Of a stretch of 39,355 bases of DNA, positions 3,010 to 22,985 are shown piece after piece. Numbering within the stretch: position 1 is the stretch's first letter; each line of letters begins with the position of its first letter. The stretch is from a virus. The translations under genes were made by a program, and so were the position numbers. The notes under the pieces are model-generated. The model saw only the letters and a program-made list of their open reading frames with translations, was not told the origin of the DNA and searched no databases. The stretch lies in the IMG/VR virus record IMGVR_UViG_3300018083_000066, positions 1 to 39,355 of that record, one strand, 5' to 3'.

Positions 3010-5239
3010 CGCCATGCGTCGATCCGGCTCCCTGCAGCGCAGGACCGGAGTAAGGGTCAACGACTGGTTCGTCCTTGAAGGCGGGCTCAACCTCGTCGAT
3101 CCGCCGCTCGCGCAGACGCCCGGTGGGCTGCTCACGTGCCGCAACTACGAACCGGGTCCGCGTGGCGGATACCGTCGTGTCGATGGGTTCGAGCGCTTCG
3201 ACGGACGACCGAGCCCGACGCGCGCCGACTACTGGACCATCACGGTCGACGGCGTAACGGCCGACCCGTTCGTGCTTGGCTATCGTCTGCGCCAGTACGC
3301 GATAGGCGAGACCGTCTTCAACAACTCCACGCAGATTGCCGATGGCGTTGTGGTGAGCATCAACGATCTAGGTGACGGGACGTTCGTGATCGGTGTGGTG
3401 GAGACCACTGACACGACCGAGTTCGACGATGGCTTCGATCAGGACGGCGACATATACACCGCTGACGTGATCGACGCGCACCCGGGTACACTGGTCGGCG
3501 TCTCGTCTCAGGCCTCGCGTAACAGCGCCCCCACGAACGACCTCAACGTACAGATCATCTCCGACAAGACCGAGTTCTACCGGGCTGATATCGAGACCGT
3601 TGGCGGTAGCCTATGCACCGGCAAGGTGTTGGGCGTGGCCATCTACAAGGACCGTGTGGTCGCATGGCGCAACGCCATCTCCGGCACCGAAGCCCTGATG
3701 TTCCAGACCGACACCAACGCCTTTACCGGTTGGCAGCAAGTCAACCTTGGGTACAAAATCTATTTCGATGAGGGCGGACCCGAGATCGAAGAAGGCGACA
3801 CCATCACTGGTGCCTCGTCTGGCGCTACGGCTATCGCCAAGCGCATCGTGAGCGACGATGGCAGTTACGTTGGCTTGGACGCCAGTGGCTTCATCATCGT
3901 CAACTCGATCACCGGGGCGTTCATCGCCAACGAAGACCTCAATGTAGGTGGAGTTAAACATGCCCAGTATCTTTCGTCCGCTGCTCAGTCACTCCTTCCT
4001 AACGGTCGCTACCGCACTCGCGTACACAACTTCGCAGGAGCAGGCGACAAAACCAGACTCTATGGAGTCAATACCGTCAACCGCGCATTCGAGTACGACG
4101 GCACCACGTTCGTCCTCATCGAAACCGGAATGGCCGTCGACACCCCCGACCACATCTTCGTACTCAACAACCACCTTGGGCTCACTTTCCCCGGGGGTTC
4201 GGTCCAGAACAGCGGCTACCAGACGCCGTTGAACTGGAGCCCGGTTCTGGGCGCAGACGAGCGCAGCATTGGCGGCGACGTGACCGAGCTGAAGGAAGGC
4301 ACCAACAACACGGTGTTCATCGCTACGCGCAACTCGACGTACGTTTACTACGGCGACGTGGTGGAGAACTTCCAGCTCCGTCTCTTCAGTCCTACCACCG
4401 GCATGCTGCCGGATACGGCTGGCGAGATCGGGCACACCATCTTCTTGGACGATCAGGGCTTCTCGACCTTGAAGTCCGCGCAGGAGTACGGCAACTTCAA
4501 GGCCAACTCGATCAGCGACAAGATTCAGCCGCTGCTGAGTCTACAGCTATCGGCACACAACGTTGCCGGCAACGTCATCGCTCGATCCAAGAACCTGTAT
4601 CGGTTCTTCTTCAGCGACGGAACCGGGCTCGCGATCAACACGCGCGCGGGCAACAAGCTCAGTGGGTGGACGCCGATCAAGTATCCGGTCAGCCCCACAT
4701 GCTTCGACTCCGGCGAGCTGGAGTACCCGGTCGCGATCATCCCGGGGCAGACGCAGAACCCGGGACCGATCTTCCCGGAACGTGTCTTCATGGGAGCGCT
4801 CGACGGCTACGTCTACGAGATGGACATCGGCTCCAGCTTCGACGGCGGCGACATCGAATACTTCATGCATACCGCCTACCATCACTCCAGAACGCCGGAT
4901 CGCTTCAAGCACTACCGCAAGGCCACCATCGACATCGACGTGGATGGGCCGGTCACGCTGTTCGTTACCGTCGACTTCAACTACGGCAACCGCACCGGAC
5001 AGGTCGGACTGGACGCGAACATCGAAGGCGGCGGCGGTATCTGGAACGTGAGCAACTGGGATCAGTTCAAGTGGGCTGGTGCCGCGTTCGACCAGATATC
5101 CCTCAAGATCGAGGGCGACGGCTACAATATCGGGATGTACTTCTACGGCAAGTCAAGTCGGGAAATGTCGCACACGATCCATAACCTCTCCTACCATCAC
5201 TCGATCCGCCGAATCAATCGCGGCTCAACGAGCGCATAA
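2996..5239 (+). CDS. Tail nozzle (beta-propeller) protein
   Basis: The likely start is the ATG at 2996 (GGCAGGGGCGG upstream), giving 747 residues. An open frame extends upstream to 2813 but is only the shadow of the adaptor gene. Repeated beta-strand blocks with GxxxRVxxxNFAGAGDKTRLYG, NRAFEYDGTTF and a late FMGALDGYVYEMD segment resemble the large nozzle or tail-tubular-B-like proteins of podoviruses, in which a beta-propeller forms the distal channel. Neighbours are the adaptor upstream and the receptor-binding protein three bases downstream. Confidence 0.65.
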   Translation: MNLADAMRRSGSLQRRTGVRVNDWFVLEGGLNLVDPPLAQTPGGLLTCRNYEPGPRGGYRRVDGFERFDGRPSPTRADYWTITVDGVTADPFVLGYRLRQYAIGETVFNNSTQIADGVVVSINDLGDGTFVIGVVETTDTTEFDDGFDQDGDIYTADVIDAHPGTLVGVSSQASRNSAPTNDLNVQIISDKTEFYRADIETVGGSLCTGKVLGVAIYKDRVVAWRNAISGTEALMFQTDTNAFTGWQQVNLGYKIYFDEGGPEIEEGDTITGASSGATAIAKRIVSDDGSYVGLDASGFIIVNSITGAFIANEDLNVGGVKHAQYLSSAAQSLLPNGRYRTRVHNFAGAGDKTRLYGVNTVNRAFEYDGTTFVLIETGMAVDTPDHIFVLNNHLGLTFPGGSVQNSGYQTPLNWSPVLGADERSIGGDVTELKEGTNNTVFIATRNSTYVYYGDVVENFQLRLFSPTTGMLPDTAGEIGHTIFLDDQGFSTLKSAQEYGNFKANSISDKIQPLLSLQLSAHNVAGNVIARSKNLYRFFFSDGTGLAINTRAGNKLSGWTPIKYPVSPTCFDSGELEYPVAIIPGQTQNPGPIFPERVFMGALDGYVYEMDIGSSFDGGDIEYFMHTAYHHSRTPDRFKHYRKATIDIDVDGPVTLFVTVDFNYGNRTGQVGLDANIEGGGGIWNVSNWDQFKWAGAAFDQISLKIEGDGYNIGMYFYGKSSREMSHTIHNLSYHHSIRRINRGSTSA

Positions 5240-8698: not shown

Positions 8699-9980
8699 GC
8701 AATTCATCAATCCGACTACTCCGCCTGACCTGACTCCGTTCGTAAACAAGGACGTGAGTCAGTCGAATCTGGCGGAGAACTCCGATCTCGGCAAAGACCT
8801 GACCAAGGCTCCCAGCTTCATTTCGGAGCTGCCGGAGGATAAGCCGCAGGCGACAGAGTGGAATGTCGACAAGAACCAGACCGTGCAAGGTCAGTTCACC
8901 GACATCATGAAGTCGGACAGCCCAGTGTTTAAACAGGTTCGCGAGCAAGTCGTTCGCGAGCATGCCGCGCGCGGGGGCCAGAACTCACTGATGGCGGCGC
9001 GCTCGGCCGAGATGGCCGTGGCCGAAGTCGGCTTCAAGATCGCGTCGCAGGACGCGGCCACGTTCGCTCGTTCCGGCGAGTTCAATGCCGCGATGAAAAA
9101 CCAGTTCGGTCTGGCCGAGCAGCAGTTCATGCACAACGCGCTCCTGTCGGAACAGAACTTCAAGCAGGGCGTCATGATGCTGCGCGAGCAGCAGATGGCC
9201 GATCTCGAAAAGATCAACGCCGACATGAAGTCGCGTCTCAATCTGATGGGCGCGCAAGGTGTCATCGACCTCAACTTGGAATCTGCCAAGCACATGAACG
9301 TGCTATCGCAGATGGACAAGGCCTACGGCCAGAACATGGAGAGTTTGAAGCTGCAGCAGAGTCAGGCGCTGGAGCGCATGGATCGCGAATCTTCAAACTC
9401 CCTGTACCAAGAGCAGCAGAAGTTCGGCTGGCAGTCGCAGTTGAGCTACATGTCCGAGGTCGGACAGAACGGACGCATGCTGATGAACACCGTGGGCGCA
9501 ATCGGAAGCAACCCCAACATCTCCGTGCAGCAGGCGCAGGCCGCGATCTCCGATGCGGTTCGCCAGTACAATGCCGTCAACGCACAGCTCGCCGCAACGT
9601 ACACCGTGCCGCAAGACCCGACGAGCACGGCGCGCGGCTACCTCAACTTCTCCGGTCACGCGCTAGGCCCGGGCAATCCCGCGCCGGCACCGGCACCTTC
9701 CTTCCAGCCCGTCCCGGTCGCAGCTCCCGCTGCCGCGCCGGCCCCTGCTATCCCTCAGGTCGCGGCTCCGCCGCCGGTCCCGGGTGGCATGGTGACCATG
9801 GTAGGTGGCGTGCCGAGCGTGAACAAGTCGCTGTACGGAAGCGACCCGGCGTACCAGCGCGCATGGAACGAAGTGGTGGCTGGACATCAGGCGCAGTTCG
9901 GACGTGGCTTCAACAAGCAGTCCGATGCTGCAGCTATCGAGCAGCATCTCGCCGCACTCTATCAGCAGTACCGTCGATGA
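8688..9980 (+). CDS. Putative internal virion (ejection) protein, 430 residues
   Basis: The ATG at 8688 is chosen; the earlier frame start at 8613 is spanin shadow. The protein has a polar N-terminus, a long Gln/Glu/Met/Ala-rich helical region (about 90-270) and a Pro/Ala-rich linker (about 325-370), then a short helical C-terminus. Such helical proteins, encoded between the tail genes and a giant polyvalent gene, are commonly packaged internal proteins ejected with the DNA. No enzymatic motif is seen. It overlaps the next gene by four bases. Confidence 0.7.
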   Translation: MANEQFINPTTPPDLTPFVNKDVSQSNLAENSDLGKDLTKAPSFISELPEDKPQATEWNVDKNQTVQGQFTDIMKSDSPVFKQVREQVVREHAARGGQNSLMAARSAEMAVAEVGFKIASQDAATFARSGEFNAAMKNQFGLAEQQFMHNALLSEQNFKQGVMMLREQQMADLEKINADMKSRLNLMGAQGVIDLNLESAKHMNVLSQMDKAYGQNMESLKLQQSQALERMDRESSNSLYQEQQKFGWQSQLSYMSEVGQNGRMLMNTVGAIGSNPNISVQQAQAAISDAVRQYNAVNAQLAATYTVPQDPTSTARGYLNFSGHALGPGNPAPAPAPSFQPVPVAAPAAAPAPAIPQVAAPPPVPGGMVTMVGGVPSVNKSLYGSDPAYQRAWNEVVAGHQAQFGRGFNKQSDAAAIEQHLAALYQQYRR

Positions 9981-10447
9981 TCCGTGCGATCCAAAATGGA
10001 GATATGCAGAAGCTCGTCGAACTCTACGACGGGCTTCATCGCAAGTCGCTGTATCACATGTTCAAGCCGCACTACGCCACCGTGCTGCAGAAGACATCGT
10101 ACCTGCAGGCAACGCCCAACGGATTCGTCCGTGTTGCCGATCACGACGGCGAACTCACTGGTGTGATCCTTTGCATCTGTGAGGAGTTCTGGTGGGTCGA
10201 GGACAAGGTCGGCGCGAAGTACGCAACCGATCTCGTCTTCTATTCCAAGCGTCGCGGAGACGGCGTGCTGATGCTGAAGGAAGCTATCGAGTGGGCATGG
10301 TCTCGTCCTCGCGTCGTCTGCTTCGAGACGGCAGTGAGTTCGGGCATCGAACACAAGTCCGCTGCCGCAATGTACGAGCGCGCAGGGCTAAAATTGCAAG
10401 GTTCATTCTGGCGGATTGAGCACCCCAAGCTGAGAGAAATGTCATGA
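9977..10447 (+). CDS. GNAT-like acetyltransferase-fold protein
   Basis: The ATG at 9977 overlaps the previous stop, giving 156 residues. The order of strands and helices fits a GNAT fold: an N-terminal helix, a central strand pair with GELTGVILCICEE, then DLVFYSKRRGDGVLMLKEAIEWA, and a late SSGIEHKSAAAMYERAGLKLQG as in the acetyl-CoA-binding end. Similar proteins occur in the internal-virion-protein block of many podoviruses, where T7 gp13-like roles are suspected. Whether it is an active acetyltransferase cannot be told. Confidence 0.7.
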   Translation: MIRAIQNGDMQKLVELYDGLHRKSLYHMFKPHYATVLQKTSYLQATPNGFVRVADHDGELTGVILCICEEFWWVEDKVGAKYATDLVFYSKRRGDGVLMLKEAIEWAWSRPRVVCFETAVSSGIEHKSAAAMYERAGLKLQGSFWRIEHPKLREMS

Positions 10448-11502
10448 GCGGTGTCGTCAAAGGCGTCAAAAAGGTCTTCAAGAAAGTAACGAAGTTCGTG
10501 AAGCGTTACTGGAAGGAGATCATCATCGCTGCCGCCATTGTGTTTACCGCAGGCGCGGCGCTCGGCTATTTCGCAGTAGGTGGAGCAGCAGCGGCTGGGG
10601 GAGGTGCCGCAGCCGCTGGCGCGGCCAGTGCGGGTGCAGCCGGGGCAACAGCCGCCGGCACGGCCACAGCAGGCGCAGCGGCAGTCGGTGGAGGCGCAGC
10701 AGCGGCGGGAGCAGGGGCAGCCGCAGCGGGTGGCACGGTGTTCGGTGCAGCCGGCGGCGCAGCCGCCCTTGGAGCGGGCACGGCGGCCGGTCTGGGCGCG
10801 GCCAGTACGGGCGCACTGGGCATGGGCACGCTGGCCACTGGTGGCGCTGCAGCGGGCCTTGGGGCCGGGTTCGGAGGTGGCATCGCCGCCGCCGCTGGCG
10901 GAGCCTCCCTGACCGAGACCGTGGGCGCGAACGTACTCAAGTCAGGCGGACAGGGCGGATACTCGCAAGCCGCCGCGACCGTTTCGCCGCAGTCCACTGC
11001 CGCGTCGACCGCATCGAGTGCGGCCGAAGGTGGCGCGACCGGCGCGAAGGGTCTGGTGAGCAAGGCGGTGACCGGGGCCAAGAACATGTGGACCGGCATG
11101 TCCTCGTTCGAGAAGATGCAGATGCTCGCTACCGGCGCGCAGATGGCCTCCTCTCTCATGGCTCCCAAGCAGGAGGAACCGGGCAACGAGTTCGCGCAGC
11201 AGGAGCAGTTCTACGGACGCGACCGCGAAGGCAAGGGAAGCGGAACCGGGTTCGACTACGACTCAGTGTCCGGCAAGATGGTAGCTGGCGGACAGGCTGG
11301 AGCGCCGTTTGTTTCGAGCCCCGCGCCGCAAAAGGACGGCACGCGCACGCCTATCCCCGCATCGTTCTTGGATAGTTCGAGAGGCCTTCCGGCGCAGGCG
11401 GCCGAGACGCCGAAGTTCATCGGCGATGACGAGCTGGAGAAGCGCATGGAGTTCGTGCAGAAGGGCTACGAGTCTGGTAGCTACACCCCGGGAGGTGCGT
11501 GA
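10444..11502 (+). CDS. Ala/Gly-rich membrane-inserting virion protein
   Basis: The 352-residue product starts with a very basic amphipathic helix (GVVKGVKKVFKKVTKFVKR), followed by a hydrophobic segment (about 25-47). A long low-complexity region made almost entirely of Ala and Gly follows (to about 170) with many GxxxG-type contacts, then a polar C-terminus. This looks like an ejected protein that inserts into the host membrane to build the DNA conduit. The Ala/Gly tract is GC-extreme, so several shadow frames are open across it. No homologue is named. Confidence 0.7.
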   Translation: MSGVVKGVKKVFKKVTKFVKRYWKEIIIAAAIVFTAGAALGYFAVGGAAAAGGGAAAAGAASAGAAGATAAGTATAGAAAVGGGAAAAGAGAAAAGGTVFGAAGGAAALGAGTAAGLGAASTGALGMGTLATGGAAAGLGAGFGGGIAAAAGGASLTETVGANVLKSGGQGGYSQAAATVSPQSTAASTASSAAEGGATGAKGLVSKAVTGAKNMWTGMSSFEKMQMLATGAQMASSLMAPKQEEPGNEFAQQEQFYGRDREGKGSGTGFDYDSVSGKMVAGGQAGAPFVSSPAPQKDGTRTPIPASFLDSSRGLPAQAAETPKFIGDDELEKRMEFVQKGYESGSYTPGGA

Positions 11503-12437
11503 TGGCACAGCCATTCATTGGTGGTGAAGAGCAGCAGGCCCCCGCGCCCGCCGCACAGCCGCAGGGTCAGCAGTTCGTATCCGGTAATCCGGAGGACGAT
11601 CTCAAGCGTCGCGAAGCCATGGACCCGGCAGAGGTCGAAGAGGTCACGCAGGAAGAGCAGGACCAGTACGATGACTTCGTGGCCCGCGCCATTGCGATGA
11701 TCTCCGACTCGCGTCAACCAGAGGGTGGCGGCAAGTCGCCGAGCGACGCCGTGCTCGATGTCATGAACAACTCCACGTTCTCCATTCCGCAGGCACTGGC
11801 CGAAGGAACGGTGAGCACCGTCAAGATTCTGCACGATGCAGCGAAGCGTCAGAACGTCGCGTACTCGCCCGATGTCATCTTCCATGGCGCGGACGAAGTG
11901 ATCGCTGGGCTCTACATGCTCGGCTCTGCCGCTGGCATCTTCAATGGCGGTAGCGACTACAGTAAGTCCGCTGGCGCGCAGGCCGCGCCCGCTGCACAAG
12001 CTGCCCCACAGCCTATGCAGTCGACTGCACAAGCTCCTACTGCACAAGCTGCGCCAGCGCCGGCGGCCCCACAGGGTTTTGGCGATCAGGCGATGCAGCC
12101 CGCTGCACAGCCGGAACCGTTCGCCGCGCAGCCTACAGGCATCGAGCCGGCCACCGAAGAGATGCCCGTAGGCACCGAGCCGGAGATGCCGAGCGACGGC
12201 GACTTCACGGACGAGGAGTACGCTATCATGGCAGAGGCTAAGATGCTCGCCACCGAGTTGTTCGGTCGCAAGCTTCAGGAGTCCGGCCAGCTCACCGAAG
12301 AAGATCAGAAAGAGGCCAAGGCATTCTGGGATCAGCAGATCGCCAAGGAAGTCGAGACCGGACAGGTCGACGATTCGATGTTCGATAGCATGGACATCGA
12401 CTCCATCCGCAAGCAAGTAATCTCCCGAGGTGCGTGA
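11502..12437 (+). CDS. Hypothetical virion-block protein with Gln/Ala/Pro linker
   Basis: I take the ATG at 11502 (311 residues), which overlaps the previous stop and has GGAGG 6 bases upstream; a GTG one codon earlier is also possible. The N-terminal part is helical, residues about 155-225 form a Gln/Ala/Pro-rich linker and the C-terminus is acidic and helical. The gene belongs to the ejection-protein run but has no recognisable domain. The stop-start junction repeats the 14 bases seen at the next junction. Confidence 0.65.
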   Translation: MAQPFIGGEEQQAPAPAAQPQGQQFVSGNPEDDLKRREAMDPAEVEEVTQEEQDQYDDFVARAIAMISDSRQPEGGGKSPSDAVLDVMNNSTFSIPQALAEGTVSTVKILHDAAKRQNVAYSPDVIFHGADEVIAGLYMLGSAAGIFNGGSDYSKSAGAQAAPAAQAAPQPMQSTAQAPTAQAAPAPAAPQGFGDQAMQPAAQPEPFAAQPTGIEPATEEMPVGTEPEMPSDGDFTDEEYAIMAEAKMLATELFGRKLQESGQLTEEDQKEAKAFWDQQIAKEVETGQVDDSMFDSMDIDSIRKQVISRGA

Positions 12438-13309
12438 TGGGCGACAGCAGAATCAGCAACGCGCTTCGAGACCTTGCCGGCGGGCTGCAGAACATCGCCG
12501 CGTTTCGCGCCGACCAGCAGCAGAAAGACGAGTCGCGTAAGTTCCAGCAGGCCATGCAGGAATCCTCGCAGGCGTTCTCCGCGCGCATGCAGGAGATCAG
12601 CATGCAGCACAGCGAGACCATGCTCGGCAAGCAGCAGGACTTCAACGCTGGCGAGTCGGACAAGGATCGCGCATTCCGTGGCGAGATGTTCGACAAGGAG
12701 CAGGGCGCTCGGATGAAGATGTTTGGTATGGAGCAGGGTGCGATCAACGCCCGCCATGCCCAGTCTCTCGGCGCGCAGTTCGAGCAACTCAAGCAGCAAG
12801 CCTCGCAAGTTGAAGACGCGAAGAAGGATCGCGACCTTCAGCGTCAGCTCAAGGTGTACGAACTCGGTGTGTCCCAAGCTTCCGGACAGCACTCCAGCCT
12901 GCTCGATCAGATGAACAAAGAGATGGGAGAGATCGCCAAGAACCCCATGCTCGCCGTCGATCCGAAGAAGTTGGCCGCAGCCAAGCAAGAAGTCAGCTCG
13001 CGCTACGCTCCGCAGCTTCAGGAGGCCACCGGCAAGATCGAAGAGAACATCAAGAAGTATGCGGGCGCGGTCGGTATCCCCGACTTCTCTGGTGTCACCG
13101 GCAACAAGGACAATCCGGAGACCAAGGCCTCTGGCGGAATGCCCGGTATGGATCGTGATAAAGTGTCGCAAGCGGTTCAAGCCGCGCAGACGCAGATTGG
13201 TGGTGGAGCCATGCCAAGCGAGCAGGCACTCGTCAACGGTTTCATGGGTAAAGGATTGACCCGTCCAGAGGCAATCGCCGCCGCCCGTCAGATGAAGGGT
13301 GGCAGGTAA
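12437..13309 (+). CDS. Coiled-coil internal virion protein, putative
   Basis: The 290-residue protein is Gln/Met/Lys/Glu-rich and looks almost wholly helical from about 15 to 160, a composition typical of packaged internal proteins. The C-terminal third has a Gly-rich linker (TKASGGMPGMDRD) and a final helix. The ATG at 12437 overlaps the previous stop (TGATG), and its own TAA overlaps the start of the giant gene (TAATG). These couplings suggest production in fixed ratio with the giant protein. No enzymatic motif was seen. Confidence 0.65.
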   Translation: MGDSRISNALRDLAGGLQNIAAFRADQQQKDESRKFQQAMQESSQAFSARMQEISMQHSETMLGKQQDFNAGESDKDRAFRGEMFDKEQGARMKMFGMEQGAINARHAQSLGAQFEQLKQQASQVEDAKKDRDLQRQLKVYELGVSQASGQHSSLLDQMNKEMGEIAKNPMLAVDPKKLAAAKQEVSSRYAPQLQEATGKIEENIKKYAGAVGIPDFSGVTGNKDNPETKASGGMPGMDRDKVSQAVQAAQTQIGGGAMPSEQALVNGFMGKGLTRPEAIAAARQMKGGR

Positions 13310-16300
13310 TGCCGACCAACTGGAAGCCGGATGGAGCGTTCGACTTCTCGGAACCGGAAGCCACTCAGGCTCCCGGTTCTTCGTTCGGTGAGTTCGATTT
13401 CAGCGAGCCCGAGGAAGAGAACAAGGACGGGTTTACTTTCAGCTCCCTGACCAATCAGCTTCTCGCGGTCGTCAACAATCCCGCCGACTCGTTCAACTAC
13501 CTCGCCGGTCGCGCGGCGCAAGTTGGCGCGACCGCAGGCTGGCTGGTCGAGCAGTCCGGCAAGGGAGACTCGCCGCTCGGTGGCGCACTCGAATCACTCG
13601 CCCCGGGATTACAGGCCCTCCCCGATGCGGCCGGAGCTATCTTCGAGCACGGGGCCGAAGCCATCGGCCAGCAGATGCAGAAGCGCAGCCGCGAGTCCGC
13701 AGACTTCTGGCTGGATCGAGTCGGCGAAGACTTCAAGAAGAAGGCCGCTGCCGGGATCGACGATCCTGAGTTCGGCGTCACCACGCTGTACGCTGCCGCG
13801 CTCGGATCGCTCCCGGAAATGATCCTGACCATGGGGTCGGGTGCGGTGGCCGGTAAGCTCGGCGCGCTCGCCACTTCCGTCACCACAGCTCGCGTTGCCG
13901 CTGCCGCTGCCAAGGGTTCGGTGGTCGCAACCAAGATTCTCCAGTACGCCAAGTACGCCCCGACCGCAGCCGGCGCGCTGGCCGGCGGTGCGACCGAGGG
14001 AGCCATGGCCGCAGGCGCATCCGGCCTTGCCATGGAAGACCGTGTAAACGCAATGAGCCACGACGAGCTGGTCACCGGAAGCGACCGCTACCTCGCCATC
14101 TACCAGTCGGCAGAGGGAATGCCCGAGGGAGAGCGCAGGGACTACGCACGCCGCACCACAGCCGAAGAGATGGCGCGCACTACCGCTTCATGGGTGGGCA
14201 TGTCCACGGCCGTCCTAGGGGCTCCTACGGGCGGCCTGATGGGCTACCTAGGTGGCAAGGCTGCAGCCAGAGCTGGAGCCAAGGCGGTGGCCGGGAAGCT
14301 GGAGAGCAGCATCACCGGGCAGGCGCTGGCCGGCTTCGCTTCCGAGGGCGCGCAGGAGTTCATGCAGGAGGGCTCGCAGCAGTTCCTCCAGAACCTTGGT
14401 CTACGCGAGTACGCGGACAAGGGCCAGTCCCTGTCCGAGGGCGTCCTGAGTAACGCGGTGATCGGCGGGCTCGTCGGTGGCGTCATGGGTGGCTCGATCA
14501 CCCCGCTCGTCGGCAGCGGCGCTCGCAAGCAGGCCAAGGCGAAGGACAAGGCCGGGGCCGCATCGGCATCACCGGAAGCGGCAGGTAAGTTCTCGCGTAA
14601 TCCGATCTTGGAAGCGAAGATCGTCGAGCAACTGCAGCAGGTACAGGACGCGAAGATTCCACCCAACGAGTTCGCCAAGGTCGCGCGCTGGGCCGGACAG
14701 AGCGAAGCTGGTGGACGCTCGTCGCTGGAGTTCTCCAAGGCGCTAGAACAACTGATCGAAGATGGCGTTGCGCCGGAACAGGTGGAGTCCGCCATCGGCG
14801 ATGACTTCGACGACAACGGCATGCTCACCGAGGCCGCCTACGACAAAGACTCGAAGCGTCTGGCATTCGATGTCGAGATGCGGATCAAGCCGCTCGATGA
14901 CCAGCAGCGCGCAGCTACCGCCGAAGCGCTCGCGAAGAACGGCGCGAACCCGTACGTCATGAATGACGGAACCATGGTGGTTCCGCAGTCGCAGGCCGGA
15001 GAAGCTGGCCTCGTTGCTGTCGCCGAAAGCATCAAGCGTGCGGTCGGTGTCGACTTCACCATCACGAGAAAGCCGAATGAAGAGTCCAAAGATTCCGTCG
15101 CCGAAGGTGCCGAAAGCTCCGTCTCCGCCGCGCCCGAAGGTGCCGCAGTCGCCGAAGGCACCGAAGGGGTATTGAGTGAAGAAGAGATCGTCAATCCGAT
15201 CCCGCGCGACGCAACGCCAGAGCAGAAGCTCGAAGCGATCCGTGCGCTCACGGCAGAGAACAAGCCGTTGGTGGATGATTTTATTGCTCAGGTTGACGCT
15301 GAACTTGGCACTACGTCTGGTTCCAGCATCAAGGGCGACGAGCAGATCATCGAGAAGTCGAAGCGTCCGTCGATCATTGCAGAGAAGCCGTGGCACGACA
15401 TCGAACACGTGCGCGACACGTTCCGATTCAAGTCGGTAATCGACACGCCCAAGCAGCTCGAATCCATCGCCGACAAGGTCAAGGATCAGGGCTGGGAGAT
15501 CGTCAAGGTAGACGTAGAGAAGATGGCCACCCCGAAGTCGTGGGGCTGGCGCTTCGTTGCGCTGGACATGCGCATGCCCAATGGGCAGCTCGTCGAATAC
15601 TACATGCCGCTCAAGGAGCTGGAGGCCGCGAAGAAGTCAGGCGGCCACGAGCTGTTCGAGAAGTGGAGGAACCGCGATCTTTCCAAGCTTCTGGAGCAAG
15701 ACCTTCGCGAGTTCGAGTTTGACCAGACGCAGTCGTACGAGCAGTACAACTCGGCCTATCAGTCGGCTTTGTCGAGAGCCGGTTTGTCAGAGAGCGAAGC
15801 CCTCGCCTCCGCCAAGAAGTTGGCGGACAAGTTGTCGTCCACGGGGGCCAAGGCCTCCATGAAGTCGTCGGACGAGAAGTTGACGCCGCGCGACCAGACG
15901 CCATCGCGGCGCGAGGCAGCCCAGCCGTCATCCAGCACCGACACCCAAGACAAGTCTTTGTTGGCCGACACGCGCATTTCTGAACCCTCCGAAGCGGACA
16001 ATGTCACTGTAGCACAACCGGGGAAGCACGTCACCGTCACCCCAGAGGCAGGCCCAGCGGGCATCGAGGCCATGGGCCGGGGTGCCGCCGTCCATCCGGA
16101 AAGCCCGCACGAGGCCCCCTCCACGCGCGAGCTGGTGGCCGGAAACTACCCCAAGGGACACGGCACCCTGAAGGGCCAGACCGCACGCGAGAACATCAGC
16201 GTCTCCATCGAGAACGTCCCGGGCTCGATCCGGCGCGCGGTCGACGGTGGCTGGTCGCGCAAGATGAAGCACTGGTACGGCTACATCCGTGGCACCAAGG

Positions 16301-19300
16301 ACGTGGGCGACGGGAAGCTAGATGTCTACATCGGGCGTAGTGCCTACGACAACACGCTGCCGGTCTTCGTGATCCGGCAGATGGAGACCAACGGCGCGTT
16401 CGACGAGCCGAAGGTCATGCTTGGTTATGCCAGCGAGGGAGAGGCGAAGAACGCCTACCTGTCCGAGTATCCTGCCGCCCTTGGGTCGCGCCTGTTCGGC
16501 GGCATTACGCGCATGACGCGCGCCCAGTTCGCTTCCTACCTAGAGACGGGAGATACCGACGTGCCGCCGCACCCGGTGTCGAAGAAGCCGATGGTTGAGC
16601 TGCGCGGAGATATTTCGTTGAGCTTGCGCAAAGTGGCGAAGATGCACGACCCTTCGCAGAGCGGAACGTCATTCAAGAACACGGTGCTTTACCACGGCAC
16701 CAGCCGCAACATTGTCGGGGATTTTGAACGGAGCAAGATCGGGGCTATGGGTCCGGCCGTCTACCTTTCTCCATACAAGGATGTCGCTGGCCCGTACGGA
16801 AAGAACCTGATCGCGGTTAGCGTGAGCGGCAAATACTTGTCGAACATGCAGTGGACGGATTACATCAATAAATATGGTTGGGAAGGCGCAGAAGCCAAAG
16901 CCATCAATGATGGTTGGGCTGGAGTATTCGATGAGAAATTTGAAGATGCGGTTGCGGTATGGAACCCGAAAGACATCACAAAAATATCGACCAAGGGGAA
17001 AAGGGTCATCGAAGCCGGGGCGCGAGAAACGCCCGATACAACCTCCGCCTTGTTGCGAAACCTGACGCCCAAGGAACAGGTCAAGGTCACGAAAGCCACG
17101 GCTACAAAGATCGTCTCAATTCTGGAGAACATGCCCGATCCTGACGAAGTGGCTGCTGTCGCGTTCGCCGGTCGCGCGAAGCGCGGTTGGTATCGCCAGA
17201 GTGCAGAGGCCATCAGTGAAGTGTTCGGCATGGACGCGCCGCGATTCGCTGGCCTGTTGGCCGCGATGTCGCCGCAGACTAGCGTGCAAAGCAATCTGCG
17301 CAATGCGCTCAACACGTGGGTCAACTGGGATGCAGCCGGTCGCCCGCAGAGCAAAGCCGAGATCACCCAGATCATGGCCGGTAGCGTTGAAGGTGGCGGC
17401 GGCATGTTCTCCGTTCTGCCGGCGTGGATAAACAACACCGTGCGCGCCCTGACCACGGAGAACCCGGCTGACATCGGGCTGTCCGGGCCGAAGGTCGATA
17501 GCTTCATGCGTAACCTCGTGGGCAATGTCGACGAGGTGACCAACGACACATGGATGGCGAACTTCGCTGCCGTCGACCAGAAGATTTTTGCCGGCACTCT
17601 GTTGGCATCTGGTGACCCGGGCAAGCGCCCCGGGTATCTGGCCATGAGTTCGCTCGTGCGCTCCGCCGCGCGCCGCCTGACGGAACTCACCGGGGACAAC
17701 TGGTCGCCGGCCGAGGTGCAGGAGACCGTGTGGAGCTGGTCCAAGACCGTGTTCGAGATGGCCGACTCTGCCGGTGAGATTCGCAACGCCGAAAGCATCG
17801 TGATGGACCGCGATGTGACGGACGAATTACTGCAATCTACCCCTGATTTTGGTACTCTGTTTACGCATGGCGAATACGCCAGCATTCTGGAGGAACATGG
17901 CTATGGTGAACAAATCGAGCGAATCCGTGCTCGCCGACCTGTTGCTGGCAAAGCTGTCGCCGAAGCCGGCTCTAAAGAAGAAGCAGGCCCGTTTGCTCGG
18001 GATACTCAGGTCGAACTCGAACGCAAAACCGCGAAGCGCCTTGACGCTCTCCGGCAAAAGCGGAACCAAAGAGTAAGCGAGGAAGTCCCCTTCAGCCTGC
18101 GTCGCCCGGTGGCCATGGACGACTTCGCGGTCGCGCCGGCCAAGGCGTTCAAGAAGCCCGGATGGGCAATCCTCACCGCGACTCGCGAAGCGGCTGGCGA
18201 TGCGACTAATGATGTAAACGTAGCGGCTAACGAGAAGCTGGCCGGCGAGCTGATGAAGCTCGGCGTTGAGTTCCGCCGTGTCAGCGGCTCGTACCAAGGT
18301 GTCGACCAAGGTGCCAACTTCCTGATCCTCGCAGACGAGGCCACCGCCAAGGCGCTCGGCGCTCGCTACGGACAGGAGAGCGTGCTGACCAATCGCGGTC
18401 TCGTGTACATGGATGGGCGCGTCACCCCGGCGATGCATGCCAACGACATCATCGGAGACGCTGCCCGCAACGAGGACTTCTTCAGCGAACTCAACGGAGA
18501 AGCGTTCTCCCTTGGACTGGACTTCGATGCCACGTCTTCCGAAGCTGCGCCGATGGAGAACATCGACGTGGACATCGCCGAGGGCGAGAACCTGATCGAA
18601 GTCAGCCGCATCGTTGACGACATCGCGAAGAACATCAAGGGCCGCCCCGGATACGAGACGGTCGCCAGCGAGAAAGACCTTCCAGCGCATGCGTTGCGCC
18701 AGATCAATTCCATGGGAGCCAACGGCCTTGTTGAAGGATTCTTTGATCCGTCCACGCAAAAGGTATTTGTCATCGCGAATAATGTTTCGCAACGCGAGGG
18801 TGAAAGCCTTGACGCTGCGGTTGAACGCATCTTCGCCGAAGAAACGCTCGGACACTACGGACTATATTCAACGCTTGGCAAAGGAGCGATGGACAAGCTA
18901 CTGGATCAGGTATGGCGAGATTTTAAGAACGACCCGGCCATGCGATCCATCGTCGATGACTATGCCAACGCCTACGGAAATCCTCACTACGACCAGTCCT
19001 CTGCCCGCAAGATGGCTTACGAGTTCGCCGCCAAGACGGACCCGAGCGTAAGCCCGTCGCTGTGGCAGAAGATGATGGCATGGCTGCGCGAAGGCCTGCG
19101 CCGCATCGGCTACGTGCGCGAATGGAGCGATGGCGATCTGCAGTTCCTGATGAGCCGCGTGTTCGACTCCGTTCGCAGCGGCACCGTTTCCTCCAGTCTG
19201 GAGAAGCTCGGCGCTTCGCTTGTGCAGGTAGAAGAGAACATTACCGAGTCGGTTGGACCGGATCGCTCCATCGTGTACGGACAGGACGGTACGCGCCAGA

Positions 19301-22281
19301 TCACTGCCGATAATTACAGCGCTGTCATCTACGACGGTGGAGTGGGCAGCGCCCCGGCGGCGGGCATCATCAGCTTTAGCGGCGACCTTCGTTCCCTCGC
19401 GTCCTATCTGGCGAACGAGGGCAAGAAGCGTGTCGTGGCTATCGAAGGCTCCCTGTCTGACGATCAGCTCGCTGGCTTCGAGCACTACAACGAGGATGGC
19501 GCGACCATCATCGACATCTCGGAAATGGCCGCAGAGGAAACCCCTGCCTTCAGTCTGCGCAATCGCCAGCGCGGAAGCGAAGACATCGAAGCGATCCTCG
19601 AAAAGACGATCCAGTCGCACACGTCGGAACTCAGCTTCGGCCACCGTATGGCGCAGTGGTTCCGCGAGATGACCGGGTACTTTGGTAGCGCTGATACGTG
19701 GCTGGAGTTGAAGACCGGGTGGGTAGACTCCGCTGCCATCATCGAGAAGCTGGAACGCAGCAAGTTCGGCGGCATGCTGCTCGATGCTGCTGAGTCGGCG
19801 TACAAGTTCGTTAGCCTCACCAAGAACCAGCCGCAGGTTATGGCCGCCATCTCCAAGCACGGCATCCCCGTGTATCAGGACGGCTCGTTCGTGCGCGTGC
19901 CCGGACGCAAGGGCCTGTACGAAATCTTCATGCCGCTGTTCAAATCCGAGAGTGGAAAGAACCTACTGCACCTGTGGGAAGGGTATGCGGTTGCGCGTCG
20001 CAGCTCGCAGCTCATCAATGAGACCAACCCGGACGGAACGAGCAAGGAGAAGTTGCTGGCTCCTGACGAGATCGACAAGCTGATCCGACTCGAAGACGAG
20101 TACCCGGAGTTCGCCAAGGTGTTCGACGACTGGCAGGAGTTCCGCAGTCAGGCGCTGGACCTTGCCGTCGAACGCGGCGCGCTGGATAGGGAAACGGCCG
20201 AGCTGTGGAAGAAGAACGACTACGTTCCGTTCTTCCGCGTCGAAGAGGATGAAGACGTTGCCGGCGGCATCTCGCGCAAGCGTGGCTTCTCTGGTCAAAA
20301 GGTAACCAGCAAGCGCTTGACCGGCAGCGACCGACGCATCCAGCCAGTACTGGAGAACATCGTGATGAACACCGCGTCGATCATCGACAAGGTGTACAAG
20401 AACGAAGCGATGAACCGTATCGTGGCACTCGCCGATGGCGTGGCCATGACGCAGGAGAAGCTGCGCACCGAGGCGGTGAAGATCGGCAACGAGCAGATCA
20501 AGGCCGCGCTGGAGAAAGCTGGACTCTCGGTTGGAACGCTGACGCCGGAGCAGGAGGAGCAGTGGACCACGTTCTTCCGCCGCGTGCGTCCGGAAGGCCA
20601 CGATGTCGTGAGCGTGATGGTGGCCGGCAAGCCGGTCTACTATCGCGTGCATGATCCGCTGCTGCTGCGCGCCATCATGGACATGTCGCCCGTCAACTTC
20701 GGCGCACTCGTGGATTTCATGGGCGGAGCGAAGCGGCTGCTCACTTCGATGGTTACGCTCGATCCGGCGTTCATGGCTCGCAACTGGATGCGCGACACGC
20801 TGTCCTCGTGGGCCGTGGTCAACGAAAGCTTCCGTCCGTTCCGTGATGCGCCCAAGGGTGCCGCAGAGGTATGGATGGAGTCCGGTCTCGCCGTCGATCT
20901 CGCGATGACTGGCGGCATGACGGGTGGCTTCTACAACCCGACGCAGGACTTCGGCGACGTGATGAAGAGCGTGGCTGGCGCGAGCGTGCTGGACAACCCC
21001 GGCAAGCTGGTCGACGCATACAAGAAGATCGGCATGGTGTCGGAGCAAGTCAATCGCATGGCCATCGCGAAGGCCGTTCTCCGTCGCGGTGGCTCCATGG
21101 CGGAAGCTGCATATCAGGCGCAGGACGTACTCAACTTCTCGCAGACTGGCGACGCCGTCGCGGCGCAACTGCTGATCCGCACCGTGCCGTTCCTCAATGC
21201 CCGCATCCAAGGCCTGTACCGCCTGTGGAAGGGAGCCAAGGGGCTGGATGGTCGCGACCCGAAGAAGGCCATGATGGCGTTCTTCATGAAGGGGCTGTTC
21301 CTGTTCGGCGTCTCGATGGCGCTGGCCCTGAAGAATCGCGGCGACGAGCGCTACGAGAAGCTGCCGGATTACCAGAAAGACACGTACTGGCACATCTTCG
21401 TGGGCGACAAGCACTACTCCATCCCCAAGCCGTTCGAAGTTGGCGTCATGTTCGCCACGCTGCCGGAGCGCGCCATGCGTCTGGCCGCCGGCAACGACAA
21501 GGGTCGGACCACGGTGATCTCGATCCAGCGCGCCCTCATGGATACGTTCGCGTTCAACCCTACGCCGCAACTGTTTAAACCTATCGTCGAGCAGTGGGCC
21601 AACCGCAGCTTCTTCACCAACCGCCCCATCGTCGGGCAGGAGCTGGAGGGGTTGGAGCCGGTCGCCCAGTACAACCCGTGGACCAGCGAGACCGCCCGCG
21701 CCGGGGCCAGCATCATCGACCAAGTCGTGCCGGACAGCATGCGCCGGTTCGTCCCCGAGACGTTGCGGTCGCCCGTCCGCATGGAGCACGCCATGCGCGC
21801 CTACCTTGGCACGATAGGCGGCTACCTCATGCAGGCCTCAGACGCCGCCCTACGGGTCTCTGGCGCGTTCCCAGAGGCACCCGCGATAGGTAGCGTCCGG
21901 GACATCCCGGTGCTCGGCAGCGTGGCAGGGAGCTTCGTACGGGGCGATCCGGAGCTGGAGCCCAGCTCGAAGTACGCCGATGACCTCTACGCCGCACTGG
22001 ACGACGCTGACGCCGCGTACCGGACGATGAACGCCTACGTCAACCAAGGTAATCTGGAGGCCGCCCAGCGCCTCACAGGCAAGCGCATGGACGCCCTGAC
22101 GGTGCGCCCGGTCCTGCACGACTTCCAGCAGGCCGCATCCGAGATCAACACCATGCAGCGCCGGATCATGAGTTCGGACATGACGCCGGAAGAGAAGCGG
22201 GCCGCCATGGATGAATTGACGCGAACGAAGAACGCCCTGATGAAGCAGGCCGTCCCGTATCTGGCCCTCATGAACTACTGA
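13309..22281 (+). CDS. Giant polyvalent ejection protein with several anti-host-type domains
   Basis: 2990 residues. From the N-terminus: disordered start; Ala/Gly-rich hydrophobic region (about 165-405); RelA/SpoT-like domain (about 690-790; R702-D703, W745-E763); inorganic-pyrophosphatase-like domain (about 937-1085); ADP-ribosyltransferase-like domain (about 1123-1235; YHGTS at 1128, Y1152); HhH/glycosylase-like domain (about 1246-1497); DUF3293-like domain (about 1595-1710); zincin-like domain with EETLGH at 1844-1849, where HExxGH is expected (about 1751-1958); and an LPD38-like C-terminal half (about 2130-2990) with a membrane-like helix near 2655. Such polyvalent proteins are known to be packaged and injected ahead of or with phage DNA to counter host defence. 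FSLR-like linkers occur at 1104, 1595 and 2081. Domain names are by pattern recognition; RelA-like, HhH and DUF3293-like are less certain than PPase, ART and LPD38. Confidence 0.9.
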   Translation: MPTNWKPDGAFDFSEPEATQAPGSSFGEFDFSEPEEENKDGFTFSSLTNQLLAVVNNPADSFNYLAGRAAQVGATAGWLVEQSGKGDSPLGGALESLAPGLQALPDAAGAIFEHGAEAIGQQMQKRSRESADFWLDRVGEDFKKKAAAGIDDPEFGVTTLYAAALGSLPEMILTMGSGAVAGKLGALATSVTTARVAAAAAKGSVVATKILQYAKYAPTAAGALAGGATEGAMAAGASGLAMEDRVNAMSHDELVTGSDRYLAIYQSAEGMPEGERRDYARRTTAEEMARTTASWVGMSTAVLGAPTGGLMGYLGGKAAARAGAKAVAGKLESSITGQALAGFASEGAQEFMQEGSQQFLQNLGLREYADKGQSLSEGVLSNAVIGGLVGGVMGGSITPLVGSGARKQAKAKDKAGAASASPEAAGKFSRNPILEAKIVEQLQQVQDAKIPPNEFAKVARWAGQSEAGGRSSLEFSKALEQLIEDGVAPEQVESAIGDDFDDNGMLTEAAYDKDSKRLAFDVEMRIKPLDDQQRAATAEALAKNGANPYVMNDGTMVVPQSQAGEAGLVAVAESIKRAVGVDFTITRKPNEESKDSVAEGAESSVSAAPEGAAVAEGTEGVLSEEEIVNPIPRDATPEQKLEAIRALTAENKPLVDDFIAQVDAELGTTSGSSIKGDEQIIEKSKRPSIIAEKPWHDIEHVRDTFRFKSVIDTPKQLESIADKVKDQGWEIVKVDVEKMATPKSWGWRFVALDMRMPNGQLVEYYMPLKELEAAKKSGGHELFEKWRNRDLSKLLEQDLREFEFDQTQSYEQYNSAYQSALSRAGLSESEALASAKKLADKLSSTGAKASMKSSDEKLTPRDQTPSRREAAQPSSSTDTQDKSLLADTRISEPSEADNVTVAQPGKHVTVTPEAGPAGIEAMGRGAAVHPESPHEAPSTRELVAGNYPKGHGTLKGQTARENISVSIENVPGSIRRAVDGGWSRKMKHWYGYIRGTKDVGDGKLDVYIGRSAYDNTLPVFVIRQMETNGAFDEPKVMLGYASEGEAKNAYLSEYPAALGSRLFGGITRMTRAQFASYLETGDTDVPPHPVSKKPMVELRGDISLSLRKVAKMHDPSQSGTSFKNTVLYHGTSRNIVGDFERSKIGAMGPAVYLSPYKDVAGPYGKNLIAVSVSGKYLSNMQWTDYINKYGWEGAEAKAINDGWAGVFDEKFEDAVAVWNPKDITKISTKGKRVIEAGARETPDTTSALLRNLTPKEQVKVTKATATKIVSILENMPDPDEVAAVAFAGRAKRGWYRQSAEAISEVFGMDAPRFAGLLAAMSPQTSVQSNLRNALNTWVNWDAAGRPQSKAEITQIMAGSVEGGGGMFSVLPAWINNTVRALTTENPADIGLSGPKVDSFMRNLVGNVDEVTNDTWMANFAAVDQKIFAGTLLASGDPGKRPGYLAMSSLVRSAARRLTELTGDNWSPAEVQETVWSWSKTVFEMADSAGEIRNAESIVMDRDVTDELLQSTPDFGTLFTHGEYASILEEHGYGEQIERIRARRPVAGKAVAEAGSKEEAGPFARDTQVELERKTAKRLDALRQKRNQRVSEEVPFSLRRPVAMDDFAVAPAKAFKKPGWAILTATREAAGDATNDVNVAANEKLAGELMKLGVEFRRVSGSYQGVDQGANFLILADEATAKALGARYGQESVLTNRGLVYMDGRVTPAMHANDIIGDAARNEDFFSELNGEAFSLGLDFDATSSEAAPMENIDVDIAEGENLIEVSRIVDDIAKNIKGRPGYETVASEKDLPAHALRQINSMGANGLVEGFFDPSTQKVFVIANNVSQREGESLDAAVERIFAEETLGHYGLYSTLGKGAMDKLLDQVWRDFKNDPAMRSIVDDYANAYGNPHYDQSSARKMAYEFAAKTDPSVSPSLWQKMMAWLREGLRRIGYVREWSDGDLQFLMSRVFDSVRSGTVSSSLEKLGASLVQVEENITESVGPDRSIVYGQDGTRQITADNYSAVIYDGGVGSAPAAGIISFSGDLRSLASYLANEGKKRVVAIEGSLSDDQLAGFEHYNEDGATIIDISEMAAEETPAFSLRNRQRGSEDIEAILEKTIQSHTSELSFGHRMAQWFREMTGYFGSADTWLELKTGWVDSAAIIEKLERSKFGGMLLDAAESAYKFVSLTKNQPQVMAAISKHGIPVYQDGSFVRVPGRKGLYEIFMPLFKSESGKNLLHLWEGYAVARRSSQLINETNPDGTSKEKLLAPDEIDKLIRLEDEYPEFAKVFDDWQEFRSQALDLAVERGALDRETAELWKKNDYVPFFRVEEDEDVAGGISRKRGFSGQKVTSKRLTGSDRRIQPVLENIVMNTASIIDKVYKNEAMNRIVALADGVAMTQEKLRTEAVKIGNEQIKAALEKAGLSVGTLTPEQEEQWTTFFRRVRPEGHDVVSVMVAGKPVYYRVHDPLLLRAIMDMSPVNFGALVDFMGGAKRLLTSMVTLDPAFMARNWMRDTLSSWAVVNESFRPFRDAPKGAAEVWMESGLAVDLAMTGGMTGGFYNPTQDFGDVMKSVAGASVLDNPGKLVDAYKKIGMVSEQVNRMAIAKAVLRRGGSMAEAAYQAQDVLNFSQTGDAVAAQLLIRTVPFLNARIQGLYRLWKGAKGLDGRDPKKAMMAFFMKGLFLFGVSMALALKNRGDERYEKLPDYQKDTYWHIFVGDKHYSIPKPFEVGVMFATLPERAMRLAAGNDKGRTTVISIQRALMDTFAFNPTPQLFKPIVEQWANRSFFTNRPIVGQELEGLEPVAQYNPWTSETARAGASIIDQVVPDSMRRFVPETLRSPVRMEHAMRAYLGTIGGYLMQASDAALRVSGAFPEAPAIGSVRDIPVLGSVAGSFVRGDPELEPSSKYADDLYAALDDADAAYRTMNAYVNQGNLEAAQRLTGKRMDALTVRPVLHDFQQAASEINTMQRRIMSSDMTPEEKRAAMDELTRTKNALMKQAVPYLALMNY

Positions 22282-22328: not shown

Positions 22329-22985
22329 ATGCGACCCTTCAAATCTGTCCTGCTTTCGGCCCTCATCCTCCTGCCCGCATTCTCGTCTGTCGCAGGCACT
22401 GGATTATCCCGACCCGAAGAGTACGCCAGCCGCGCAGCGGTCAGCATGGACGACGGAAGGTGCAGCGGCACGGCAATCGACTCGCCCAAAGGCAACGTCG
22501 TACTCACCGCTTCCCACTGCATCCACGGCGAGATCACACTAGTTCGCTTCGACGGCAAGATCATGGCCGTGTCGCGCGTTATCGCGGACGGCAACGACCA
22601 CTCGCTGATCGTCGTGAAGGGACACACCTTCCGGAACACTGCCGAAGTCGGGCCACGTCCACCTATTGGCTCTTCCGTTTTTATCTTCGGCAACTCGATG
22701 TTTGAAGACTTCTTCCGGCGCGGCACCGTAACCGGATACCACGACGATAGATGGAACCCGCCCAACATGGACCTTGGTATCAGCAACTGGATGGTGCTCG
22801 ATATGCTCGTTGCCCCCGGCGATTCTGGCTCCGGCGTGTTCGACGATAAGGGCCGGGTGGTCGGCGTCATCACTGGCTATGCCGGGATCGGGCCACACAC
22901 CATTGCGGTCGCGTTGCCATTCAAGTTCAAACATCAAGACGTAGTCGGTCTTGTCGCCAATCCCGGTCCACTGATCGGAAAATGA
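22329..22985 (+). CDS. Secreted trypsin-like serine protease
   Basis: The 218-residue protein has an N-terminal signal peptide (about residues 1-23, cleavage near VAG). The chymotrypsin-fold triad is visible: H63 in LTASHC, D90 in GNDHSLIV and S166 in APGDSGSG. It is therefore probably an active periplasmic or exported endopeptidase. It follows the giant polyvalent gene and precedes a small zincin. Whether it cleaves virion proteins, host envelope proteins or the giant protein is unknown; a signal peptide favours action outside the cytoplasm. Codon use matches the phage. Confidence 0.85.
   Translation: MRPFKSVLLSALILLPAFSSVAGTGLSRPEEYASRAAVSMDDGRCSGTAIDSPKGNVVLTASHCIHGEITLVRFDGKIMAVSRVIADGNDHSLIVVKGHTFRNTAEVGPRPPIGSSVFIFGNSMFEDFFRRGTVTGYHDDRWNPPNMDLGISNWMVLDMLVAPGDSGSGVFDDKGRVVGVITGYAGIGPHTIAVALPFKFKHQDVVGLVANPGPLIGK

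What the first reader, a model, noticed from the sequence alone, without database searches (positions are those of the whole stretch)
13309..22281. A single 2990-residue ejected-type protein with many anti-host domains
Seen: one uninterrupted frame with distinct blocks. Family knowledge: pyrophosphatase-like, ADP-ribosyltransferase-like, zincin-like and LPD38 domains occur together in phage polyvalent proteins, which are thought to be packaged and injected to counter host defence. Inference: this gene, placed at the end of an ejection-protein run, is such an effector. Its particular combination, with a RelA/SpoT-like and DUF3293-like block, may be new.
Basis: partly seen in the sequence, partly recalled or inferred. 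Interest (0 to 1): 0.8.

Follow-up and report, generated by a model that had tools for sequence, protein, structure and literature searches.

The report
Cysteine-free giant injected phage effector
A short-tailed phage encodes one 2990-residue protein, containing not a single cysteine, that is very probably packed in the virus particle and pushed into the bacterium; it carries an alarmone-synthetase-like, a DNA-glycosylase-like and a SAM-lyase-like enzyme among others, so it is a known kind of anti-host package with two payloads not described for it and a telltale composition that known injected proteins share.

Summary
The ORF is real (13309-22281, 2990 aa) and is a phage polyvalent protein as defined by Iyer et al. 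2017 (PMC5512222). LPD38 and InPase are unambiguous. The RelA/SpoT-like block, invisible to Pfam, is confirmed by an AlphaFold2 model (pLDDT 93): all leading PDB matches are alarmone synthetases (Z up to 15.9). Three refinements. (2) The DUF3293 block belongs with phage SAM lyases; one homologue scores 2e-21. (3) The zincin block lost its first zinc histidine (EETLGH where relatives have HExxxH), so self-processing is doubtful. The C-terminal 860 aa are shared with dozens of phages whose middle payloads differ; one such protein (JC1 gp69) is virion-associated by mass spectrometry. No relative found holds the full set. Unexpectedly the protein has zero cysteines, as have the three genes upstream, 30 of about 34 giant relatives, and T7 gp15/gp16, N4 vRNAP and P22 gp7/16/20: independent evidence for ejection and a possible general signature. 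Packaging, catalysis and targets of this protein are inferred, not shown.

The parts
13309..22281 (+). the 2990-aa giant polyvalent protein; no cysteine codon in frame (113 and 82 TGY triplets in the other two frames)
13309..15108 (+). N-terminal Ala/Gly-rich region (aa 1-600), ejection-type; aa 135-547 match the N-terminal part of the phage virion RNA polymerase PHROG profile, aa 162-577 the DarB-like one
   Evidence: E 2.3e-18 and 1.9e-10; shuffled control no such hit
15163..15795 (+). RelA/SpoT (small alarmone synthetase)-like nucleotidyltransferase domain, aa 619-829; invariant K675, K683, R686, D703, E763
16135..16542 (+). InPase domain, aa 943-1078; two acidic positions of the D-x-D-x-x-D motif of relatives read Gly here in an ungapped alignment
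16666..17028 (+). ART-PolyVal-like ADP-ribosyltransferase block, aa 1120-1240 (LYHGT ... VYLSP ...)
   Evidence: below curated cut-off
17056..18078 (+). DUF7178 domain, aa 1250-1590, HhH-GPD DNA-glycosylase-like; invariant K1395 and D1413
18130..18543 (+). DUF3293 / SAM-lyase-like domain, aa 1608-1745; G1660-x-Y1662 and Q1689-E1690-S1691
18721..19218 (+). zincin-like metallopeptidase domain, aa 1805-1970, with EETLGH (1844-1849) in place of HExxxH
19696..22278 (+). C-terminal module shared with dozens of phages, aa 2130-2990; Pfam LPD38 at aa 2679-2850 (21343-21858)
10444..11502 (+). upstream gene, 352 aa, Ala/Gly-rich, zero Cys; probable ejection protein
11499..12437 (+). upstream gene, 312 aa, zero Cys; probable ejection protein
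12434..13309 (+). upstream gene, 291 aa, zero Cys; probable ejection protein, overlaps the giant gene by one base

Best explanation
A phage-type polyvalent protein: a multi-enzyme cargo that is packed in the capsid of a short-tailed phage, threaded through the tail and envelope together with the genome, and active in the cytoplasm in the first minutes of infection. The N-terminal (aa 1-600) and C-terminal LPD38 (aa 2130-2990) parts are the constant packaging/ejection ends; the middle is an exchangeable payload: alarmone-synthetase-like NTase, InPase, ART, HhH-GPD glycosylase/AP-lyase-like, SAM-lyase-like and a zincin-like domain. Most likely actions: the SAM-lyase-like domain lowers SAM to blunt SAM-dependent restriction (as T3 SAMase does), the RelA-like domain makes a (p)ppGpp-type or pyrophosphorylated product that reprograms host transcription and translation, the ART modifies host proteins, and the glycosylase-like domain acts on modified or damaged bases in incoming or host DNA. 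Shown: ORF, domain homology, folds, module shuffling, cysteine absence. Inferred: packaging of this protein, catalysis, targets. Cysteines are avoided, on this reading, because the chain crosses the tail and periplasm unfolded, where stray disulfides would be harmful.
For: Domains and folds. Same C-terminal end with different payloads: methylase/helicase (Vibrio D274), ddrB-ParB + methylase (phiARM81mr), InPase + LPD3 (CF418P1). Relative JC1 gp69, with LPD38 at 4195-4401, found in purified virions with 51 unique peptides (PMC9144972). Cysteine: giant relatives 0.01% vs 0.88% in other ORFs, the only residue so depleted; their two nearest upstream neighbours 0.1%, the third 0.65%; T7 gp15/16, N4 vRNAP/gp51/gp52, P22 gp7/16/20, phiKMV gp35-37, SP6 gp35-37 all zero. 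N-terminal match to virion RNA polymerase.
Against: No virion proteomics for this phage; it is a metagenomic contig without an isolate. Several enzymes look degenerate: zincin first His is Glu, InPase acidic motif shifted, SAM-lyase Glu69 position apparently Gln. The HhH-GPD match comes from structure alone: no Foldseek hit at E < 0.001, no Pfam/NCBIfam or profile-profile match. epsilon15 internal proteins and P1 DarB do contain cysteines, so cysteine absence is not an absolute rule.
Confidence: 0.82

Rival explanations
1. It is mainly a structural ejection protein (conduit or tape), and the enzyme-like blocks are largely decayed, kept as spacers or DNA-binding folds.
For: Zincin lost its first His, the InPase acidic motif is shifted, the SAM-lyase Glu69 position is apparently Gln, ART is below its cut-off.
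Against: The RelA-like block keeps K, R, D and E invariant across 33 sequences and DUF7178 keeps Lys/Asp across 48; payloads swap as whole domains among relatives, as expected for selected effectors.
Confidence: 0.15
2. The protein is made and acts late in the producing cell (assembly, takeover or lysis) rather than being injected.
For: No proteomics for this phage; it follows structural genes and precedes a protease gene.
Against: Homologous-end protein JC1 gp69 is in virions; zero cysteines as in known ejected proteins; N-terminal match to virion RNA polymerase.
Confidence: 0.06
3. The DUF7178 block is not a glycosylase but another HhH-GPD-fold enzyme, such as a base-hypermodification transferase or a nucleoside hydrolase.
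For: The VIA list also holds the queuosine salvage enzyme DUF2419 (Z 7.9) and the phage 5-PmdU glycinyltransferase (Z 5.0).
Against: Best matches are Ogg-type glycosylase/lyases (Z 9.4-10.1), and the invariant Lys/Asp spacing of 18 fits bifunctional glycosylases (spacing in Nth and Ogg from own knowledge).
Confidence: 0.3

Closest known systems
Phage polyvalent proteins (Iyer et al. 2017, PMC5512222)
   Same: Giant multidomain phage protein joining disparate enzymes; RelA/SpoT, InPase, ART, zincin and LPD38 are all listed there
   Different: A glycosylase-like (DUF7178) and a DUF3293/SAM-lyase-like domain are not named in that text ('glycosylase' 0, 'duf3293' 0); the full combination was not found in any relative; zincin first His lost
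Bcep22-like DarB-like giant proteins (JC1 gp69, Bcep22 gp75)
   Same: LPD38 C-terminus, last gene of the morphogenesis module; JC1 gp69 has zero cysteines (4515 aa) and is in virions by MS
   Different: JC1 payload is methylase/helicase/transglycosylase; here alarmone synthetase, InPase, ART, glycosylase-like, SAM-lyase-like
N4 virion RNA polymerase (gp50)
   Same: Giant cysteine-free ejected protein; N-terminal region similar by PHROG profile
   Different: Carries an RNA polymerase; an LPD38-type end was not tested there
Small alarmone synthetases (SAS1/RelQ, SAS2/RelP), Tas1, CapRel
   Same: Fold (Z 12.8-15.9) and pattern of Lys/Arg/Asp/Glu residues
   Different: No Pfam RelA_SpoT match; embedded in a giant phage protein; product unknown
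Archaeal/Thermotoga Ogg 8-oxoguanine glycosylase/lyases
   Same: Helical fold over about 180 residues, Lys/Asp pair spacing
   Different: 11-14% identity; no profile match; larger C-terminal extension
Phage SAM lyases (Svi3-3, T3 SAMase; PMC7877911)
   Same: G-x-Y and Q-E-S motifs of the SAM pocket; homologue L044 block matches PF23780 at 2.4e-21
   Different: Window block itself scores only 0.016 for PF23780; Glu69 position appears to be Gln

Membership tests
Phage polyvalent protein (Iyer 2017) | two or more domains of disparate biochemistry in one polypeptide of a phage | tested here: met
Phage polyvalent protein (Iyer 2017) | phage-type marker domain such as LPD38 or InPase | tested here: met
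   both far over cut-off
Phage polyvalent protein (Iyer 2017) | delivered with the DNA at infection | not testable with these tools
   only indirect: JC1 gp69 MS, cysteine signature
RelA/SpoT-type synthetase | alarmone synthetase fold of the Pol-beta NTase superfamily | tested here: met
   all leading rows are alarmone synthetases, Z 15.9; first other family Z 8.2
RelA/SpoT-type synthetase | conserved basic, Asp and Glu active-site positions | tested here: met
   K675, K683, R686, D703, E763 invariant in 33 sequences; correspondence to catalytic residues from own knowledge
RelA/SpoT-type synthetase | match to Pfam RelA_SpoT PF04607 | tested here: not met
   so PF04607 membership is not claimed, only fold and likely mechanism
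RelA/SpoT-type synthetase | transfers pyrophosphate from ATP | not testable with these tools
   needs assay
HhH-GPD DNA glycosylase | HhH-GPD fold | tested here: inconclusive
   Z 10.1, 10.0, 9.4 to Ogg enzymes, MUTYH 7.8, AGOG 7.0; unrelated rows 6.2 or less over about 80 aa; but Foldseek E > 0.3 and middling Z for helical folds is common
HhH-GPD DNA glycosylase | catalytic Lys/Asp pair about 18 residues apart | tested here: met
   K1395 and D1413 invariant in 48 sequences
HhH-GPD DNA glycosylase | profile match to PF00730 or related models | tested here: not met
   so family membership is not claimed
Phage SAM lyase / DUF3293 | match to the family model | tested here: met
   DUF3293 29.2 bits vs 25; 7 of 8 aligned relatives match PF23780, best 7.3e-20; the window block alone is sub-threshold for PF23780
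Phage SAM lyase / DUF3293 | Gly56, Tyr58, Gln104 of the SAM pocket | tested here: met
   G1660, Y1662, Q1689 by motif
Phage SAM lyase / DUF3293 | Glu69 | tested here: inconclusive
   aligned position is Q1667 in the window, Glu in L044, L038, L013; loop length differs from Svi3-3
Zincin-like metallopeptidase of polyvalent proteins | HExxH or HExxxH zinc motif | tested here: not met
   EETLGH; all seven relatives keep the first His
InPase (PF18823) | match over curated cut-off | tested here: met
   99 bits vs 26.8
InPase (PF18823) | conserved acidic metal ligands | tested here: inconclusive
   D-x-D-x-x-D of relatives aligns to G-D-G-K-L-D
ART-PolyVal (PF18760) | match over curated cut-off | tested here: not met
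   26.8 vs 31.2 bits, E 1e-5; described as ART-like only
LPD38 (PF18857) | match over curated cut-off | tested here: met

The most novel reading that the evidence does not exclude
Proteins that short-tailed phages thread into the cell are purged of cysteine, so absence of cysteine over a long chain marks ejected cargo from sequence alone; and this cargo carries two payload enzymes not described for polyvalent proteins, a glycosylase/AP-lyase-like domain (DUF7178, in at least 153 viral contigs) and a SAM-lyase-like domain (DUF3293).
Probability: 0.5. Interest if true: 0.8.

Novelty: new variant of a known kind. Interest (0 to 1): 0.64.

Why it matters
Two uncharacterised Pfam families (DUF7178, DUF3293) gain testable biochemical predictions, both fitting counter-defence: base excision and SAM depletion. 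The cysteine signature, if it holds broadly, gives a simple sequence-only predictor of which phage proteins enter the cell, a question otherwise needing proteomics, and bears on whether such giants unfold in transit. The review of ejection proteins and the recent N4 vRNAP structure paper that I could search do not mention cysteine.

Tried and rejected
Direct search of viral contigs with the whole protein gave nothing; megablast to phages none; N-terminal and RelA-like blocks gave no tblastn hit in phages. PF04607 against the window: none. A joint alignment of DUF7178 and DUF3293 blocks was misaligned by MAFFT, so only DUF7178 was folded. hhalign of DUF7178 against ten Nth/MutY/AlkA-like sequences found no match; NCBIfam and Pfam scans of 48 members show no glycosylase family. 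Foldseek in PDB for DUF7178 gave only chance rows. PDB searches with the DUF3293 profile and with the SAM-lyase-like homologue gave nothing relevant. PF23780 against the whole window found no match; the link rests on homologues. I considered that cysteine absence follows from GC content or codon bias and rejected it: the other two frames of the same gene hold 113 and 82 TGY triplets. I also considered that all virion proteins lack cysteine: portal, coat, tail and spike proteins of the same phages mostly have it, though many other large ORFs in the fetched loci (94 of 225 of 500 aa or more) also have none, so the signature is not exclusive to the giant genes. That the zincin motif is a misalignment is unlikely: the flanks align without gaps around it.

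Full report
OBSERVATION. The frame 13309-22281 is open for 2990 codons and cannot be chance (about 2e-44). It starts at an ATG that overlaps the previous gene's stop. The contig is a 39355-base virus record whose left end is cut in the major head protein gene. The genes between look like those of a short-tailed phage: tail fibre, SLT-type lysozyme, GNAT, then three genes of 352, 312 and 291 aa and the giant gene; RecT, RecE-like, helicase and primase-like genes lie further right.

DOMAINS BY PROFILE. Pfam gives LPD38 (2679-2850), InPase (943-1078) and DUF7178 (1292-1475) over their cut-offs, with ART-PolyVal and DUF3293 weaker. Scanned alone, DUF3293 passes its cut-off and a second family appears on the same residues: S-AdoMet_lyase, E 0.016. 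InPase also matches the C-terminal extension of a phage portal in the PDB, 9b41; in the Pa193 portal paper residues 529-765 had no density (that 9b41 is this portal is my inference from name and length). Iyer et al. already noted InPase fused to portals.

RELA/SPOT-LIKE BLOCK. Pfam RelA_SpoT does not match. I found relatives step by step in viral contigs: one, six, then 39, nearly all in giant proteins of 1700-4000 aa, many with the same C-terminal module. Profiles of these relatives find alarmone synthetases among the first PDB rows, though weakly (YwaC 0.0099, RelP-type 0.05). An AlphaFold2 model from 33 sequences (pLDDT 93.4) settles it: the 50 Foldseek rows shown are alarmone synthetases or RelA/SpoT-family proteins (best E 6.8e-7), and VIA gives Z 15.9 to SAS1, 12.9 to the type VI effector Tas1 and 12.8 to CapRel, with the first unrelated family at 8.2. 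Positions K675, K683, R686, D703 and E763 are invariant. Which product it makes is unknown; Tas1 and CapRel show the fold can make (p)ppApp or modify tRNA (own knowledge).

DUF7178 BLOCK. The domain spans about aa 1250-1590 and is common: 153 viral contigs encode relatives, up to 67% identical, mostly inside proteins of 500-3300 aa; a short solo copy in a mycobacterial prophage is annotated N-glycosylase/DNA lyase. The AlphaFold2 model is excellent (pLDDT 93.5, pTM 0.91). Foldseek finds no significant PDB match, but re-alignment of its candidates by VIA ranks three Ogg glycosylase/lyases first (Z 10.1, 10.0, 9.4 over about 180 residues), then DUF2419 (7.9), MUTYH (7.8) and AGOG (7.0), with unrelated rows at 6.2 or lower over about 80 residues. 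The Lys of the SGPK turn (K1395) and the Asp of VTxDxW (D1413) are invariant in 48 sequences and 18 apart, which I recall to be the spacing of the catalytic pair in Nth and close to that in Ogg1. Sequence-only methods do not make the link, so I rate the glycosylase-type fold at about 0.8 and glycosylase/lyase activity at about 0.6.

DUF3293 BLOCK. Of eight aligned homologues seven match Pfam S-AdoMet_lyase, best 7.3e-20, and seven match DUF3293; the block of L044 reaches 2.4e-21 over the full model and a Flavobacterium phage structural protein passes the cut-off. Svi3-3 work names Gly56, Tyr58, Glu69 and Gln104 as SAM-pocket residues, with Glu105 and Ser106 next to the last (PMC7877911). The block has G1660-x-Y1662 and Q1689-E1690-S1691 in that order. 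The Glu69 position is Glu in several homologues and Gln (Q1667) in the window by my alignment; E69Q in Svi3-3 binds SAM but is 4500-fold slower. So SAM-lyase kinship is well supported, full activity of this copy is not. T3 SAMase is known for anti-restriction.

ZINCIN BLOCK. Seven homologues keep HE followed by three residues and His; the window reads EETLGH with the second His and the later Glu kept. Iyer et al. propose that such peptidases process polyvalent proteins. This copy probably does not do so in the usual way.

ARCHITECTURE. The last 860 residues are shared with phages of E. coli, Vibrio, Aeromonas, Achromobacter, cyanobacteria, Pelagibacter and Bacillus, but the middle differs: methylase/helicase, ddrB-ParB, LPD3, and so on. 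Among the viral contigs, RelA-like plus LPD38 end, DUF7178 plus LPD38 end, DUF7178 plus SAM-lyase-like plus LPD38 end, InPase plus DUF7178, and InPase plus RelA-like plus LPD38 end all occur, but no relative holds the whole set. The exact combination is therefore new in what I could search; the principle is not.

DELIVERY. JC1 gp69, a 4515-aa protein with LPD38 at the same end, is the second strongest protein in the virion mass spectrum of its phage (PMC9144972). The N-terminal 640 aa match the N-terminal part of the virion RNA polymerase profile (E 2.3e-18) and DarB-like proteins, while a shuffled copy does not.

CYSTEINE. The protein has no cysteine in 2990 residues; about 23 would be expected from the other window genes (P about 1e-10). 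It is not a nucleotide effect: the other two frames hold 113 and 82 TGY triplets. The three genes before it (955 aa) also have none, whereas the GNAT gene before those has five. Of 34-35 giant ORFs with the same C-terminal end 30 have none; the set holds near-duplicates (for example L094/L096 and L123-L125). Cysteine is 0.01% there against 0.88% in other ORFs of the loci, the only residue so depleted; the next lowest ratio is His at 0.5. The two nearest upstream neighbours of the giants are also poor in cysteine (0.1%), the third is not (0.65%). Known or annotated internal/ejected proteins agree: N4 vRNAP (3500 aa), gp51, gp52; T7 gp15, gp16; P22 gp7, gp16, gp20; phiKMV gp35-37; SP6 gp35-37: all zero; JC1 gp69: zero. 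T7 gp14 has one, epsilon15 gp14-17 have five in 2574 aa, P1 DarB nine in 2255. Most portal, coat, tail and spike proteins and enzymes of the same phages have ordinary or moderately low contents. The review of ejection proteins and the N4 vRNAP structure paper do not mention cysteine, and two library searches found nothing on it; I cannot exclude earlier notice in subscription papers. The explanation I favour is that chains threaded unfolded through tail and periplasm must avoid oxidation and mispairing; this is inference.

VERDICT. The class is known; the payload set, two domain assignments and the composition signature are the additions.

Noticed in passing
10444-13309 and 13309-22281: Four consecutive genes (3945 aa) encode not one cysteine, while flanking genes do; same in giant relatives and in known ejected proteins of T7, N4, P22, phiKMV, SP6.
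   Followed up: yes
22329-22985: Next gene downstream encodes a trypsin-like serine protease (GDSGS motif) with a signal-peptide-like start, matching a PHROG 'protease' family; role with or without the giant protein unknown.
   Followed up: no
9863-10447: GNAT acetyltransferase just before the ejection-type genes; GNAT genes sit near internal virion genes also in JC1, Pelagibacter phage HTVC204P, Mel-JY33 and epsilon15.
   Followed up: partly
1-672: Record is cut inside the major head protein gene; terminase large subunit and portal were not identified, so the contig is a partial genome.
   Followed up: no
L012 5089-17127, L013 5044-16128: Cyanophage and Flavobacterium phage giant proteins (4012 and 3694 aa) carrying the DUF3293/SAM-lyase-like block are also cysteine-free.
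   Followed up: partly
L011 4723-10221; P1 DarB at L153 10469-17236: Giant injected-type proteins of a 209-kb phage and of contractile-tailed P1 do contain cysteines, hinting that the avoidance is tied to short-tailed delivery.
   Followed up: no
giant LPD38 proteins of the fetched loci: Histidine is also halved (0.89% vs 1.79%).
   Followed up: no
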